Origin: Syntrophomonadaceae bacterium
GTDB taxonomy: Bacteria; Bacillota; Syntrophomonadia; Syntrophomonadales; Syntrophomonadaceae
Length of the DNA: 64,000 nucleotides
Direction: 5' to 3'
Assembly: GCA_012522955.1 (NCBI GenBank)
Contig: JAAYJK010000047.1
Span: forward strand, 1-64,000
Shown here piece by piece: positions 36,662 through 42,622 of the stretch. A program made the translations under genes and the position numbers. Position 1 is the first letter of the stretch. Each line of letters starts with the position of its first letter. The notes under the pieces were generated by a model. It had not been told where the DNA came from and searched no databases. It was given only the letters and a program-made list of their open reading frames with translations.

Positions 36662-37069
36662 TCAAGTATTCTGTCCCTGGGCCACCAGCTGGTCATTTTG
36701 ATTTGATATCTTCCACTGATAGCTTACCAGGCCACCACCGCGCTTTATTTCTTTGGTGCTTAATACTTCACAATCAACATGAATTTTGTCATTTGGATGC
36801 ACCGGGTTTTTCCATGAAATAGCATCAGCGGAGGTCCATACCGCATCGGCCAGGAAACCATGTTTGGCCATTAATCCCATCATACATAAAATAAGATAGG
36901 CACCAGGAGCTACTCGGGCCTTAAAACCCCAGCCTTGAGCAAATTCGTTGTCAAGAAAGCCGGGCAAGTCGGCTCCGGAAAGCTGGGCCACCATATCGAT
37001 TTCAGTGCCGGTAATGGGTTTGCTGCCAGTTGTAAAGGTATAACCCTGTTCAACATCTTCGAAGAACAA
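36662..37069 (-). CDS. MaoC-like dehydratase domain protein (hotdog fold)
   Basis: 135 residues from a TTG at 37069 (GGGAGGTGA, five bases); the protein starts MFFEDVEQGYTFTTG, a typical MaoC opening, whereas the earlier GTG overlaps the ribosome binding site. Single hotdog fold with a hydratase-2-like segment (about residues 45-60, AQGWGFKARVAPGAYL). MaoC proteins hydrate enoyl-CoA or act on related acyl compounds; the Asp/His pair of the strict R-hydratase motif is not obvious, so activity is uncertain. Last gene of the minus-strand cluster. Confidence 0.8.
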   Translation of the reverse strand: MFFEDVEQGYTFTTGSKPITGTEIDMVAQLSGADLPGFLDNEFAQGWGFKARVAPGAYLILCMMGLMAKHGFLADAVWTSADAISWKNPVHPNDKIHVDCEVLSTKEIKRGGGLVSYQWKISNQNDQLVAQGQNT

Positions 37070-37306
37070 TCTGTTCACCTCCCTCTTGGCTTGAGAACAT
37101 ATAAAGCACAGCAGATTAAATATTCAATTCGATAATAATTAAATCATAGCACAAGCAGAAGGCAGAAAAGCAGGCATTTGTCCAAAATTAACATATATTC
37201 CATATGGCTTGATTTTTTATAAATTCTGGTAATAAATAGAGCTATCTGCCTGGCAGGCCACATAAGTCGGCTATCCCAAAGGGACTAATGTTTGGGTTAG
37301 TAGAAT

Positions 37307-37963
37307 TCAGGAGATTTGCTTGATGAGATTTTTTATCTCATGGGGAGATTCTATTAGATAATCAGCGCCGTTTTGCCGTAGTTCTTCTCGACCTCTAAAG
37401 CCCCAGGCCGCTCCGGCTATTTTGATCCCGGCATTGTGAGCAGTCAAAACATCCACATTGGTGTCACCTATATATAGAGCTTGTTCCGGAGCAAGCTGCA
37501 GTTCTTCCAAAATACTATTCAAAGAAGCAGGGTCCGGCTTGGTGGGATAATGCTCTGATTTCCCTTTAATCCTAGCGAAAGTGATGTCAGGAAACATTTC
37601 CTCTACTATGATTTTGGTAAATCGATCAGGTTTGTTAGACAGAACCGCAAGCTGTAAACCCTCCTCTTGCAGATCTCTTAACAATTCTACGCAACCGGCA
37701 TAAGGACGGGTAAGATCTGCGTAATGGCCGTTGTAGTAATAATCAAAATCCTCCAGTAGCTGTTGTACCTGTTCTTCTTGGTAAATTTCTCCCATGGCGC
37801 GCTGCAAAAGAATCAATACCCCATCTCCGATCAAATAGGGGAATTCGTGGATTTGGCGAGGGGGAAAACCATTTTTTATCAAAGCATAGTTGGTACTAGC
37901 GGCTAGATCTTCCAGAGAATTGACCAGGGTTCCATCCAAATCAAAAACACAGAGCTTGATCAT
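37307..37963 (-). CDS. HAD-superfamily phosphatase, phosphoglycolate-phosphatase-like
   Basis: 218 residues. HAD motif I VFDLDGTLVNS at residue 5, motif II VLSNKP about 107, motif III K (about 140), motif IV YIGDTNVDVLTA about 163. The helical cap places it in the Gph/PpaX/BPGM-like group. Such enzymes dephosphorylate sugar phosphates, phosphoglycolate or pyrophosphate. In a cluster with a RuBisCO-like protein it could remove phosphate from a pathway intermediate. Ribosome binding site AAAGGATTG. Confidence 0.9.
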   Translation of the reverse strand: MIKLCVFDLDGTLVNSLEDLAASTNYALIKNGFPPRQIHEFPYLIGDGVLILLQRAMGEIYQEEQVQQLLEDFDYYYNGHYADLTRPYAGCVELLRDLQEEGLQLAVLSNKPDRFTKIIVEEMFPDITFARIKGKSEHYPTKPDPASLNSILEELQLAPEQALYIGDTNVDVLTAHNAGIKIAGAAWGFRGREELRQNGADYLIESPHEIKNLIKQIS

Positions 37964-38002
37964 GATAACAATCCTTTCTCATGTTAAACTGTGGATCACA
38001 AG

Positions 38003-38096
38003 GAGGCGACCACAGGTGGCCCCTACAGGCCGTTTATCGTATTGTTGATGAAATTGCCTGATAAACGAATTGTAGGGGCGGTCTGTGACCGCCAGT
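38003..38096 (+). repeat. Dispersed palindromic repeat, copy 6 (divergent, with inner hairpin)
   Basis: Contains GGCGACCACAGGTGGCC, then CGTTTATC...GATAAACG as an inner inverted repeat, then TGTAGGGGCGGTCTGTGACCG. Same double-palindrome plan as copies 4 and 5 but a different spacer. Fills the gap before the TIM-barrel gene's 3' end. Confidence 0.7.
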
Positions 38097-38106
38097 TATT
38101 GTATAT

Positions 38107-38940
38107 TTACTTTAACTTGATCCCTTTATATTGCCTGGTAATTTCTATTACCGCATTTTCCGTTGGCATCCTTTCGCCGCTGGAACCGGAGGCATAACCA
38201 TGGGCAGCAGAATATTGAACAGAATAGGCTGCGGTCTGAACATCCTTGAATGGACCTCCATGAGTCAAGATCAAAATCTTGGAATTCACCGCCTGGGCAG
38301 CCTCCATGATTTGCTGCACAGTTTCTACTGCTTGCTCCATGGTCATAAGCTCCTGGGCTCCGGTCAAACCGCCGCTGGTAACTCCCACAATGGCTCCAAT
38401 TACATCGGCTCCAGCCTGGGCCATTATCCGGGCTTCCTGAGCATTAAAAGCCCAGGCTACAGTAAAGATATCCTTGGCGTGAGCAGTTTGAATCAGCTCA
38501 ACTTCCCGGGAGAAGCCGATACCGGCTGCCTCCAGCTGCTGGGCAAAGAAGTCTCCATACAAACCGGCAAAAGGCTCGTTGGTTATTCCGGAAAAGCCGA
38601 GTTCCATCATTTCATCAATGATACGAGACAGATTCACAGCCGGGTTGTGAGCGCCAATGCCAGCTATGCAGGGAGCTCGTTTGATTACCGGGATAATTTC
38701 CCGAGCCATTTCTTTTACACAGGCATTACAGTCTTCATAAGGCATCCAGGCCAAGAGAGTAGGCTGACCGATCATACGAAATTTGGCGGTGGAATATACT
38801 GCGATCAGGTCGGCTCCTCCAATGTCGGCACATTTGGCGGTTAATCCAGTTCCTGCTCCAAACATCAAAAGGGCATGCTGTTGTTTAAGCTGTTCCTGGA
38901 GGCCTTTTATTATTTCCTCGCGGCCATACTTGGCTACCAT
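38107..38940 (-). CDS. TIM-barrel protein, PEP-hydrolase-like family (PF09370), paralogue 2
   Basis: 277 residues; ATG behind CTGGAGGTGG. The family is a TIM barrel related to phosphoenolpyruvate-using enzymes and to the C-terminal half of the plant Tm-1 protein. Shared strings with the paralogue at 40440: GAGTG near residue 29, GG-x-DLI-x-VY, MPY-x-D, PVIK-x-x-P-x-IAGI, LGFS, EARI/EARL, GG-x-TG or GGS, and THGGP/SHGGP. It follows the Tm-1-like gene by 17 bp. Reaction unknown. Confidence 0.86.
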   Translation of the reverse strand: MVAKYGREEIIKGLQEQLKQQHALLMFGAGTGLTAKCADIGGADLIAVYSTAKFRMIGQPTLLAWMPYEDCNACVKEMAREIIPVIKRAPCIAGIGAHNPAVNLSRIIDEMMELGFSGITNEPFAGLYGDFFAQQLEAAGIGFSREVELIQTAHAKDIFTVAWAFNAQEARIMAQAGADVIGAIVGVTSGGLTGAQELMTMEQAVETVQQIMEAAQAVNSKILILTHGGPFKDVQTAAYSVQYSAAHGYASGSSGERMPTENAVIEITRQYKGIKLK

Positions 38941-38957
38941 TTACTCCACCTCCAGTT

Positions 38958-40304
38958 TTAAAAAGGAATAATATCGGGACGGTGGGAATGACTTCCTTTT
39001 TTCCAACGGCCCTCCAGCATTTCGGAAAGTAGTTCGGCCATAAACACTGCAAACTCAGGTTGGTTCATATGCTTGTCTACCAGAATAACTTCCAGGTTTT
39101 CCTTGTTTCTATCTATGCTATTACGTAATGCCTCCACATAGCGAACCGATCTCAAGGACCACTGGGGTTGACCAGGATCAGCTACCCAAACCGGCCCAGA
39201 TCCCGGCCCGGCCCAGCCCAGCTCAATATCGGCCTCAGCCAGGTCACAAGCTCCCCAGCCTCGCATGGGTATAGCCAGCACACTTGGTCCCTGGGCCCGG
39301 TTCAATTTGACTGCCATGTGTTCACCAATGCGATAAATCTCTTCCAAGGATACACCAACACAGGTTACCGTTGGATTGTGTACGTATAAACCACGGCCCG
39401 GCTGGTCGGTTTCTTGGATAAATTTTTCGGGCACGGTATTTCGAGGACCAAAATTAATCAGATCCAATCCTCCCGGAGCTACCACTTGAGGAATTCCCAT
39501 ATCGCCCGCTGCAGTCATCCGGTCTTCTCCAGCTCCCAGTACACCACCCAGCATTTCATCCCCTATTTCATGAGTGGTGATATCCAGGACTCCGGCAATA
39601 AACCCATCCCGAATCAGTTCCTCCATAGATCTTCCACCGCTGCCTACCGCGTGGTTAATGATGACATCGTATCCTTTGTCTTCCATATATTGAGAGGCTT
39701 TCAAAACACAGGGGGTAGTAACTCCAAACATCATACAACCTATCAAAGGTTTTTCTTCAATGTTTTCCATCTTGGGGGCGGTAGCCATACCTATGATTGC
39801 TCCTGCCGCATTATTAAGCACTTGCCGGGTAACCTTGTTTAACCCCGCTTCCGCTATTGGATACATCAGACAGATGTCCCGGGTACCCACATAAGGAGAA
39901 ACGTCTCCCGAGGCCATGGTAGTAAGCATAAATTTTGGTACCCCAATGGGGAGGGACTGCATTATCCGAGTGGCGATGCTGGCCCCCATGGAACCGCCAT
40001 AGGCAATTATTCCATCCAGTTGGCCGGCACTTAATAACTCATCGGCTAGTTTAATGGCCCCGGCCGCTATCATATCTGAAGCCTGGCCTCGATCTAGAGC
40101 AAAAATTTCTTCCTTGGTTTTTCCCATCTTGGCTACTACCTGGCTAACACCGATATCAGCCCAGCCTACTTCATGTCCTACGCTTAGTTCCAAAATGGTT
40201 GCTTTGCCACCGGCAGCTGTAACTCGTTCAGCCAGAAACTTTATTTCATCACCTTTAGTATCCAAAATACCTGCTACTAGAATTTGCGGTTGATTGGTCA
40301 TCAT
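38958..40304 (-). CDS. Tm-1-like ATP-binding protein (UPF0261)
   Basis: 448 residues from the ATG at 40304 (AAAGGAGGG, six bases). Motifs: AGILDTKGDEIKFLAERV at the start, GGSMGASIATRIMQSLPIG about 100-118, and LTTMASGDVSPYVGTRDICL about 125-144. UPF0261 is the N-terminal half of the tomato Tm-1 protein, which binds ATP; the C-terminal half of Tm-1 is the TIM barrel encoded by its neighbours. Here the halves are separate genes, an arrangement also seen in other bacteria. Cellular role unknown. It is 135 bp downstream of the other TIM-barrel gene. Confidence 0.87.
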   Translation of the reverse strand: MMTNQPQILVAGILDTKGDEIKFLAERVTAAGGKATILELSVGHEVGWADIGVSQVVAKMGKTKEEIFALDRGQASDMIAAGAIKLADELLSAGQLDGIIAYGGSMGASIATRIMQSLPIGVPKFMLTTMASGDVSPYVGTRDICLMYPIAEAGLNKVTRQVLNNAAGAIIGMATAPKMENIEEKPLIGCMMFGVTTPCVLKASQYMEDKGYDVIINHAVGSGGRSMEELIRDGFIAGVLDITTHEIGDEMLGGVLGAGEDRMTAAGDMGIPQVVAPGGLDLINFGPRNTVPEKFIQETDQPGRGLYVHNPTVTCVGVSLEEIYRIGEHMAVKLNRAQGPSVLAIPMRGWGACDLAEADIELGWAGPGSGPVWVADPGQPQWSLRSVRYVEALRNSIDRNKENLEVILVDKHMNQPEFAVFMAELLSEMLEGRWKKGSHSHRPDIIPF

Positions 40305-40398
40305 TAACACCCTCCTTTATTATTCACCATACTGGTGAACCGTTTATTTCCGTTTCGGCTTAAATTAGGGACCGTATTATTCAGGCCATAGGCCTGTT

Positions 40399-40428
40399 CG
40401 GACCTGGTCCTGAGTGGGCCCAGGTCCG
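40399..40428 (-). promoter_or_regulatory. Strong GC hairpin between the two halves of the cluster
   Basis: CGGACCTGG and CCAGGTCCG pair perfectly around an 11-12 base loop. On the minus strand it lies between the RLP/TIM-barrel pair and the Tm-1/TIM-barrel pair. A second small palindrome (AGGCCTATGGCCT) follows. No T-run, so it may stabilise or pause the transcript rather than end it. Confidence 0.55.
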
Positions 40429-40439
40429 GGTTAGACCCC

Positions 40440-41285
40440 CTATTTTTTCAAAGGGATATTCTTAAACTGTTGGCAAGCCTCCTTAAGAGGCACTTCGATA
40501 GGTATACGTTCGATACTGGAAGCGCCCAGGAAACCTACTGATTCAGTCTTCTCATAGATGTAGCGGGTATCTTCCGGATAAGCTATAGGACCACCGTGGG
40601 AGAAGATCATTATATCTTTGTATCCTTCCTTGGCCGCAGCTGTCATTTCATTAATCAAATCTGCCGATTTTTCCAGAGTCAGTTTATTCTCGGCGTATTT
40701 GGAACCAATAGATCCTCCGGCGGTGAGACCCATGTGGCAAATCAATACATCCAACTGGGCTTGCCCCACCAGTCTGGCTTCTTCAACATTAAAGGCATAG
40801 CCCAGAGTAAACATACCCAGTGATTTAGCGATTTTCAGAGTTTCAATTTCTACCCCGTAGCCCATACCGGTGTCCTCCAGTTCCTGCCGGAATCTGCCGT
40901 CGATAAGGCCTACGGTTGGGAAGTTCATAACCGCTGAAAAGCCCAAATTAATCAGGGATTTAAAATAGGGAGCCATTTCCCGGGTTGGGTCGGTTCCGCA
41001 TATACCGGCTATCATAGGGGTTTCCTTGATTACTGGGAAAACCCGGTTAGCCAGGTCGATGACAATCTGATTGGCATCCCCGTATGGCATCAGCCCAGCC
41101 AGGGAACCTTTACCATCCATGCGGTACAGGCCAGAATTGTATACTCCAATTAAATCAACTCCGCCTTGCTCGGAGAATTTGCCCGAAATACCGGTACCTG
41201 CTCCGGCAATTATGATGGGTTTTCCAGCCGCAATACTGTTTTTCAGTCTGTTTAATACTTCTTCCCGCGTATATTGTTTAGCCAA
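40440..41285 (-). CDS. TIM-barrel protein, PEP-hydrolase-like family (PF09370), paralogue 1
   Basis: 281 residues; TTG start behind AAGGAGGT. Same family as 38107 with more divergence in the N-terminal and middle parts (for instance GGVDLIGVYNSGLYRMDGKG against GGADLIAVYSTAKFRMIG in the paralogue). It is 20 bp after the RuBisCO-like gene, in the same direction. Two paralogues in one cluster suggests two related substrates or a heteromer. Confidence 0.86.
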   Translation of the reverse strand: MAKQYTREEVLNRLKNSIAAGKPIIIAGAGTGISGKFSEQGGVDLIGVYNSGLYRMDGKGSLAGLMPYGDANQIVIDLANRVFPVIKETPMIAGICGTDPTREMAPYFKSLINLGFSAVMNFPTVGLIDGRFRQELEDTGMGYGVEIETLKIAKSLGMFTLGYAFNVEEARLVGQAQLDVLICHMGLTAGGSIGSKYAENKLTLEKSADLINEMTAAAKEGYKDIMIFSHGGPIAYPEDTRYIYEKTESVGFLGASSIERIPIEVPLKEACQQFKNIPLKK

Positions 41286-41305
41286 ACTTAAAACCTCCTT
41301 AACAA

Positions 41306-42622
41306 TTAACCTTTAATATCAAAAAGCATTGTTTCTTCTTCTTCCATCACTCCCCAAGCATCATAAGCCGCTTTCACTTCAGGGTTTTCTTTAGCTGCAT
41401 CGTGGAATGAAACACCTTTTACCGCTGCATCTATTACATAGCGCATGGATCTGGCACCTGCCACCGGTCCCATAGGATGGCCGTGAATGGCACCGCCTAC
41501 TCCCAGTATGCTGTCAATGCCCAGATCTCGAATAATGGCATGAACGCAATTATGCATAACACCTCCACCCGGCATGGGAAGTGCCCGCTTAATGTTGCAC
41601 CAGGGGCTGTTCAAATGATGACCTATTTGCAGATATCGTTCTCTTAATAGGGGGAATTTTCCAAAAGGACTGGGGTATACTACCATATCGGCTCCAGCTA
41701 AACGCACCAGTTTGCCCAGGATAAGATGTGAACTCAAGCCGGAAATGGGAGATTCATACATGGTTCCGGCAAAATCCAGGTGGGCCATGATAGGCACATT
41801 GATATTGGGGTCTTCGGCCAGAGCCTGCAAATTAGATATGCCCACAGTCAAGTAGTTGATCAAAAGAGCATTGGCCCCGGCGTCAATAGACCGTTTGGCA
41901 TTATCAATTATTTTGCCGGCTGAATCGGTGATATTGGGACAATAGAGTACTTTGTGGCCGGTTTCTTCGTAATGACGATTAATGGCCTGCATATAGAGCT
42001 TAATTCTATCATCTCGGGGACAGAAAGGAGGATCAGCGATCAATTCATCGTCTTTTACTATATCTACTCCTCCCTCAATGGCCAGGGAGAAAAGCTTGCA
42101 GCCCACCTCAGGGGTATAACCGGTGCAAGGTTTAACCATATTGTTCAAGAGGGGACGATCATGGACCCCCAGTAAATCCCGTATACCCTTCACACCGAAC
42201 TTGGGACCCTGAAAGCCATTCATATATTCTGGAGGAAACTTAATATCCAGCAGCTTAAGCCTTCCGGCCATGGAAATATTACCAATAATGGTACTCAGCA
42301 TCATAGGGATTTGAGCTCCGAAGTTAATTACTGGATAAGCCAGTTGAAACACAAATCGGCGGGTTTTCTGATCTGGCGGAACTTCAAACTCATGGGCTGG
42401 AACTTCATAGATTCCCACTACCCGGGCCACATGTTTGGCTCTAACTTCGGAGGTTTCCTCGGGAACAGCTACCCAGGTTCCGGTAGTTTGTTCTATTCCT
42501 ATGGAAGCGATCTTTTTTACAATGTCAGTGTTAATGCCAGTTTCAATGAAATAGGTAGCAATGACATATCCACCCTCGGCCTCGACCTGCTCAGGAATTA
42601 CCAACATGTCTAATTCTGACAA
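41306..42622 (-). CDS. RuBisCO-like protein (form IV-type), not a CO2-fixing RuBisCO
   Basis: 438 residues; TTG start with AAGGAGG eight bases upstream. The RuBisCO fold is clear: N-terminal TGTWVAV (E44, E60 of spinach), N115 (N123), VKPCTGYTPE (K164 for K175), GGVDIVKDDE (K190 for K201, D192 for D203, E193 for E204), AHLDFAG (H281 for H294), SSHLILGKL (H299 for H327, K304 for K334). Changed: K177 is Cys, R295 is Leu, S379 is Gly (PGGG). So carbamylation and Mg binding look intact, but not the full carboxylase set. Known RLPs act in methionine salvage and acid-sugar breakdown. First gene of the cluster. Confidence 0.93.
   Translation of the reverse strand: MSELDMLVIPEQVEAEGGYVIATYFIETGINTDIVKKIASIGIEQTTGTWVAVPEETSEVRAKHVARVVGIYEVPAHEFEVPPDQKTRRFVFQLAYPVINFGAQIPMMLSTIIGNISMAGRLKLLDIKFPPEYMNGFQGPKFGVKGIRDLLGVHDRPLLNNMVKPCTGYTPEVGCKLFSLAIEGGVDIVKDDELIADPPFCPRDDRIKLYMQAINRHYEETGHKVLYCPNITDSAGKIIDNAKRSIDAGANALLINYLTVGISNLQALAEDPNINVPIMAHLDFAGTMYESPISGLSSHLILGKLVRLAGADMVVYPSPFGKFPLLRERYLQIGHHLNSPWCNIKRALPMPGGGVMHNCVHAIIRDLGIDSILGVGGAIHGHPMGPVAGARSMRYVIDAAVKGVSFHDAAKENPEVKAAYDAWGVMEEEETMLFDIKG

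What the first reader, a model, noticed from the sequence alone, without database searches (positions are those of the whole stretch)
36662..42622. RuBisCO-like protein clustered with two PEP-hydrolase-like TIM barrels and a Tm-1-like protein
Seen: six minus-strand genes in order RLP, TIM barrel, Tm-1-like, TIM barrel, HAD phosphatase, MaoC. Known: the TIM-barrel and UPF0261 families are the two halves of the plant Tm-1 protein and have no settled reaction; RLPs act in methionine salvage and acid-sugar pathways. Inference: a new pathway in which an RLP handles an enediol or beta-keto intermediate, with ATP-dependent (Tm-1) and phosphate-removing (HAD) steps. Nothing in the cluster matches methionine salvage.
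Basis: partly seen in the sequence, partly recalled or inferred. Interest (0 to 1): 0.88.

Follow-up and report, generated by a model that had tools for sequence, protein, structure and literature searches.

The report
Conserved RuBisCO-like and Tm-1-like operon
A four-gene operon, kept together in about 25 anaerobic bacterial genomes, links a RuBisCO relative to a bacterial cousin of a plant virus-resistance protein; it is probably an undescribed sugar-acid degradation route in which the Tm-1-like protein is the kinase.

Summary
The same order, on one strand and tightly spaced, occurs in about 25 Bacillota genomes. Most of the others carry a fifth gene, a ComB-type phosphatase, between barrel 1 and UPF0261; the window's lineage has deleted it. 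HAD and MaoC are not conserved neighbours. Across 63 genomes of the class, all 15 with this RLP also have UPF0261, against 2 of 48 without. The RLP belongs to an uncharacterised clade: it keeps the metal and enolisation residues, lacks RuBisCO's R295 and H327, and lacks the MtnW catalytic lysine. UPF0261 is no longer without a reaction: a solved relative binds acetovanillone and very probably is the kinase MarK. Elsewhere UPF0261 genes sit beside aldolases in sugar operons, in places where acid-sugar kinases sit in OiaX operons. Best reading: kinase (UPF0261), enolising RLP, C-C lyase (PF09370) and phosphatase (ComB) acting on a sugar-acid-like substrate. The substrate is unknown. Methionine salvage is unlikely.

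The parts
41306..42622 (-). RuBisCO-like protein (RLP), 438 aa, TTG start, first gene of the operon
   Evidence: Pfam RuBisCO_large/RuBisCO_large_N; 68-92% identical orthologues in about 23 genomes; active-site map
40440..41285 (-). PF09370 TIM barrel 1 (canonical type, keeps GTDP / NFPTVGL / CHMGLT / SHGGP motifs shared with PDB 2p10)
   Evidence: Pfam, PDB match 2p10, alignment A2, model pTM 0.87 and Foldseek: 2p10 then PEP-mutase/isocitrate-lyase fold
40311..40439 (-). Deletion scar of the ComB-type phosphatase gene present at this place in relatives; last 22 nt identical to the ComB end plus UPF0261 ribosome-binding site of the nearest relative
   Evidence: no PF04029 anywhere in the genome
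38958..40310 (-). UPF0261 / Tm-1-like protein, 450 aa, proposed ATP-dependent kinase
   Evidence: Pfam, PDB 9mpy E=7e-65 and tomato Tm-1 3wry E=1e-58, model and Foldseek
38107..38940 (-). PF09370 TIM barrel 2 (divergent paralogue, 35% to barrel 1; conserved barrel 1 motifs GTDP, NFP and CHMG altered to AHNP, NEP and AIVG)
   Evidence: Pfam, PDB match 2p10, alignment A2
37985..38100 (.). Dispersed genomic repeat separating the operon from the HAD gene
   Evidence: 50 listed matches in the window's genome
37307..37963 (-). HAD-family phosphatase (phosphoglycolate-phosphatase-like, below the equivalog cut-off); not conserved with the operon, possible stand-in for the lost ComB
36662..37078 (-). 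MaoC-like hot-dog protein; probably not part of the unit

Best explanation
The operon encodes an undescribed catabolic route for a sugar-acid-like (polyhydroxy or oxo acid) substrate. The UPF0261 protein uses ATP to phosphorylate a hydroxyl group of the substrate. The RLP, with a carbamylated lysine and Mg2+, enolises the phosphorylated intermediate and isomerises or decarboxylates it. The canonical PF09370 barrel (barrel 1) breaks a C-C bond of the intermediate as a PEP-mutase/isocitrate-lyase-like lyase; the divergent barrel 2 has a second specificity or is a partner subunit. A ComB-type phosphatase removes the phosphate in most lineages; this genome has lost ComB and may use the adjacent HAD phosphatase or a general one. 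Shown: the operon, its conservation, the retained RLP residues, the ComB deletion, the family and fold assignments. Inferred: each catalytic role, their order, and the substrate class.
For: Conserved operon and co-occurrence. UPF0261 as kinase: Foldseek and sequence match to 9mpy, a UPF0261 protein with acetovanillone bound; acetovanillone catabolism in that organism is started by the single-component kinase MarK (PMC13101465). UPF0261 loci from across Bacillota lie in sugar operons next to a C-C lyase: class II aldolase (L180, L196, L198-L201, L203-L205), DHDPS-type aldolase (L206, and by the same neighbour sequence L209) or PF09370; in L180, L196 and L200 the order MBL hydrolase-UPF0261-RLP-class II aldolase with TPI and RpiB resembles OiaX-DUF1537 kinase-TPI-RpiB of Rhizobium. 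Most RLP groups seen are paired with a phosphorylating system: UPF0261; FGGY kinase in Dehalococcoidia and Solincola; PTS in L067; DUF1537 kinase for OiaX-type. RLP keeps N123, K175, K201, D203, E204, H294, K334 and G381/G403. Regulators: a G3P_antiterm gene near 10 of 11 main-clade operons outside the window's class, and a SorC sugar-binding regulator in L031, point to a phosphorylated inducer.
Against: No operon of the main type carries a transporter, dehydrogenase or TPI/RpiB gene that would name the substrate. ComB is absent in 5 of about 25 core operons, so it is dispensable or replaceable. Lokiarchaeota RLPs of the same clade have no kinase neighbour that I could recognise. That 9mpy (Saro_1862) is MarK is inferred from organism, ligand and authorship; the MarK paper itself was not held. 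MarK's substrate is a phenol, not a sugar acid. The PF09370 lyase role rests on fold and on swapping with aldolases, not on a tested residue.
Confidence: 0.45

Rival explanations
1. The RLP belongs to an anaerobic salvage pathway for methylthioadenosine or 5'-deoxyadenosine: it isomerises 5-methylthioribulose-1-phosphate (DeepYkr type) or 5-deoxyribulose-1-phosphate, and the other genes process the product.
For: MtnW is the nearest characterised family and MtnW solved structures are the best PDB matches. The genome has MtnP and MtnA homologues, so the substrate is probably made. The RLP keeps features compatible with 1,3-proton transfer.
Against: MtnP, MtnA, a class II aldolase and a deaminase-like amidohydrolase form their own cluster elsewhere, an apparent aldolase shunt that needs no RLP (named there by sequence inspection, MtnA family). 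The MtnW catalytic lysine is Asn here. No cupin or mtnX lies nearby, and the neighbours UPF0261, PF09370 and ComB are unknown in any salvage pathway.
Confidence: 0.12
2. UPF0261 and PF09370 proteins form a ligand-sensing or regulatory complex (the older view of PF09370 as a signal-transduction barrel) that controls or chaperones the RLP rather than forming successive pathway steps.
For: Co-evolution of the two families is reported (PMC5028733); plant Tm-1 is a fusion of both that acts as a binding protein; barrel 2 has lost motifs conserved in barrel 1.
Against: UPF0261 occurs without PF09370 in operons with true aldolases, and a UPF0261 relative is solved with a metabolite bound and is probably a kinase. 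Barrel 1 keeps the family motifs.
Confidence: 0.12
3. The operon runs an OiaX-like apionate-type pathway: UPF0261 phosphorylates 3-oxo-isoapionate or a close tetronate, and the RLP decarboxylates it to a tetrulose phosphate.
For: Divergent UPF0261-RLP operons carry TPI- and RpiB-like isomerases plus class II aldolase, and in L192 also transketolase and fructose-6-phosphate aldolase, as expected for a tetrulose-phosphate product; OiaX operons have the same isomerase pair.
Against: The RLP is far below the OiaX cut-off (198 against 700 bits) and lacks R295; main-type operons have no TPI or RpiB neighbours; the divergent RLPs also lack K334.
Confidence: 0.2

Closest known systems
OiaX / OiaK-type RLP operons (D-apionate and related acid-sugar catabolism)
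   Same: RLP next to a kinase, within a sugar-type operon; in divergent members also TPI- and RpiB-like isomerases
   Different: Kinase is UPF0261 instead of DUF1537; RLP only about 28% identical and below the OiaX cut-off; PF09370 barrels and ComB are extra
MtnW-MtnX of Bacillus methionine salvage (DK-MTP-1-P enolase plus phosphatase)
   Same: Nearest RLP family by score, and the same logic of an enolising RLP plus a separate phosphatase
   Different: Catalytic lysine of MtnW is Asn, phosphatase is ComB rather than MtnX, no other salvage gene; scores below the MtnW cut-offs
MarK / Saro_1862, UPF0261 protein of Novosphingobium aromaticivorans (acetovanillone catabolism)
   Same: Same protein family, E=7e-65, family motifs kept
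   Different: Phenolic substrate and a carboxylase step there; here RLP, PF09370 and ComB partners
Plant Tm-1 (tomato mosaic virus resistance)
   Same: Its two halves are the UPF0261 and PF09370 families found here as separate genes
   Different: Plant protein is a fusion that inhibits viral RNA replication; the bacterial genes are probably metabolic
ComB, 2-phosphosulfolactate phosphatase (coenzyme M biosynthesis)
   Same: The operon phosphatase of relatives is PF04029, E=3e-63, PDB 1vr0 matched
   Different: No other coenzyme M gene was recognised in the operon; the gene is absent in this genome

Membership tests
MtnW (DK-MTP-1-P enolase) | Score above curated cut-off | tested here: not met
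   386.6 against 409 bits and 340.5 against 513.6 bits
MtnW (DK-MTP-1-P enolase) | General-base lysine (K98 of Geobacillus enzyme, from own knowledge) | tested here: not met
   Asn at that column in every member of the clade, Lys in Bacillus MtnW
MtnW (DK-MTP-1-P enolase) | Methionine-salvage neighbours such as mtnX, mtnB, mtnK | tested here: not met
   Neighbourhoods of about 25 operons; compare Bacillus locus
True RuBisCO (forms I-III) | K175, K177, K201, D203, E204, H294, R295, H327, K334, S379 all present | tested here: not met
   K177 to C, R295 to L, H327 to V, S379 to G
RuBisCO-like protein (form IV) | RuBisCO family with carbamate lysine and metal ligands but substituted active-site residues | tested here: met
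DeepYkr RLP (MTRu-1-P 1,3-isomerase) | Isomerase activity and cupin partner | tested here: inconclusive
   No cupin neighbour seen; activity and clade placement against R. rubrum RLP not tested
OiaX | NCBIfam equivalog cut-off | tested here: not met
   197.9 against 700 bits
UPF0261 (Tm-1-like) | Both Pfam domains above gathering score and match to solved Tm-1/UPF0261 structures | tested here: met
UPF0261 kinase of MarK type | ATP-dependent phosphorylation of a substrate hydroxyl | not testable with these tools
   Homology only
PF09370 (PEP hydrolase-like) | Pfam gathering score and fold of 2p10 | tested here: met
   Both barrels pass by score and by sequence match to 2p10; the fold was checked by model and Foldseek for barrel 1 only
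Phosphoglycolate phosphatase (HAD gene) | NCBIfam equivalog cut-off | tested here: not met
   152 against 225 bits and 135.7 against 180 bits

The most novel reading that the evidence does not exclude
An undescribed RLP clade (signature KPC[TA]G, without R295 and H327) catalyses a new reaction on a substrate phosphorylated by a UPF0261 kinase, and PF09370 is the C-C lyase of that pathway; this would give a first reaction to PF09370 and explain why the two halves of plant Tm-1 travel together: they are a kinase-lyase pair.
Probability: 0.4. Interest if true: 0.78.

Novelty: new variant of a known kind. Interest (0 to 1): 0.64.

Why it matters
RuBisCO-like proteins are a model for how one fold acquires new reactions, and most clades have no known function. 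UPF0261 and PF09370 are widespread in bacteria, archaea, fungi and plants, and are fused in the tomato virus-resistance protein Tm-1, yet PF09370 has no reaction I could find in the held literature. A compact conserved operon, with a kinase lead for one gene, fold and residue evidence for others and regulators hinting at a phosphorylated inducer, makes the chemistry directly testable with a small set of proteins.

Tried and rejected
Six-gene operon: rejected, HAD and MaoC are not conserved with the rest. HAD as the ancestral phosphatase: rejected in favour of ComB. Methionine salvage: judged unlikely because a separate MtnP-MtnA-aldolase cluster exists and the MtnW lysine is missing. OiaX identity: rejected on score. 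Known RNA element near the operon: none found. Promoter and terminator scans: no more sites than shuffles give. Literature for UPF0261, PF09370 or 'Tm-1-like' with RLP: nothing on this operon, but only open-licence papers were searchable. MarK paper: not held. G3P_antiterm in the window's genome: absent.
Full report
Observation. The six ORFs are real and correctly named. Within the window the RLP, PF09370 barrel 1, UPF0261 and PF09370 barrel 2 run in one direction; RLP-barrel 1 and UPF0261-barrel 2 are 20 and 17 nt apart. A dispersed repeat and gaps of 143 and 228 nt separate the HAD and MaoC genes from them.

Conservation. I took the RLP to 61 related genomes, to the GTDP... that is, GTDB contig collection (70 loci) and to 63 genomes of the class, and the UPF0261 family to 63 class genomes and 398 phylum genomes. 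Neighbourhoods were fetched and mapped by tblastn. In the class, 15 of 15 RLP genomes have UPF0261 and 2 of 48 others do (Fisher p about 1e-12, relatedness not corrected). Four further operons with much more divergent RLPs (about 38-43% identical) also hold UPF0261: L180, L196 and L200 side by side, L192 with one gene between.

The missing gene. In 20 of about 25 core operons a PF04029 (ComB-type) phosphatase lies between barrel 1 and UPF0261, including the nearest relative (L020, RLP 92% identical). In the window that place holds 129 nt whose end is identical to the relative's ComB end and ribosome-binding site, and the genome, 99.85% complete, has no PF04029 at all. In L137 ComB and UPF0261 are one open frame of 617 aa, a natural fusion if the assembly is right.

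The RLP. It is nearest to MtnW by score but below its cut-offs. Aligned with a true RuBisCO, MtnW, OiaX and others it keeps N123, K175, the carbamate lysine K201, D203, E204, H294, K334 and P1-site glycines, but has lost K177, R295, H327 and S379. MtnW's catalytic lysine position is Asn. The whole clade, including Lokiarchaeota, Dehalococcoidia and Solincola members, shares KPC[TA]G. The expected outcome is enolisation of a substrate with one phosphate near C1 (inference from the RuBisCO mechanism).

UPF0261. The AlphaFold model (pLDDT 82, pTM 0.68) and sequence search match 9mpy, Saro_1862 from Novosphingobium with acetovanillone bound, and tomato Tm-1. [quoted passage not shown] Saro_1862 being MarK is my inference. 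Context agrees: UPF0261 genes in Bacillota sit with class II aldolases and creatininase-family proteins, a DHDPS-type aldolase, or PF09370, and with sugar ABC transporters, TPI and RpiB in the divergent RLP operons. In OiaX operons a DUF1537 kinase holds the corresponding place.

PF09370. Barrel 1 keeps the motifs of 2p10; its model matches 2p10 and then 2-methylisocitrate lyase and PEP mutase, among other TIM barrels. Since PF09370 and true aldolases replace one another next to UPF0261, a lyase role is the simplest reading. Barrel 2 changes several of the conserved motifs, so it may differ in reaction or be a partner.

Regulation. Ten of eleven main-type operons outside the window's class have a G3P_antiterm gene nearby (just upstream in nine, downstream in L046; L047 has none), and the divergent L031 operon has a SorC-type regulator. 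Known members of these families respond to glycerol phosphate or sugar phosphates (own knowledge), which fits a phosphorylated intermediate. The window's genome has no G3P_antiterm gene.

Alternatives. Salvage of methylthioadenosine is apparently served by a separate MtnP-MtnA-aldolase-amidohydrolase cluster. A purely regulatory role for UPF0261/PF09370 does not fit the aldolase-swapping pattern. An apionate-like pathway remains open for the divergent operons and less so for the main type.

Verdict. A real, conserved, apparently undescribed operon; a new variant of the known kinase-RLP theme.

Noticed in passing
L032 (G000:C25:28892-30178): Second RLP, 51% identical to the first, behind a SorC regulator and a PHP-domain gene but without UPF0261 or PF09370 neighbours; in L031 (G013) the same SorC-PHP-RLP set is followed by the full barrel-UPF0261-barrel set.
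   Followed up: partly
L146:7063-10897 (G000:C72): MtnP, MtnA, class II aldolase and amidohydrolase in a row: apparent aldolase-type methylthioadenosine/5'-deoxyadenosine salvage.
   Followed up: partly
window 37985-38100: Dispersed inverted repeat, at least 50 related copies in the genome, also elsewhere in the window.
   Followed up: partly
L137:3-1856 (G031:C407): ComB and UPF0261 in one open reading frame of 617 aa, a possible natural fusion.
   Followed up: no
L030 and L029: RLP reading frame broken by stops or frameshift in two genomes (G028, G043); pseudogene or assembly error not resolved.
   Followed up: no
L055, L058-L061, L063-L066, L103: Cousin RLPs of Dehalococcoidia and Solincola lie next to an FGGY-type kinase; Lokiarchaeota cousins lie in other contexts.
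   Followed up: partly
L067:547-8843: Eubacteriaceae cousin RLP in a PTS operon with a 2-hydroxyacid dehydrogenase and a PHP-domain gene.
   Followed up: partly
L147:6395-11561 (G000:C59): A second MtnA-like gene a few kilobases from methylmalonyl-CoA-mutase-like subunits and a G-protein chaperone.
   Followed up: no
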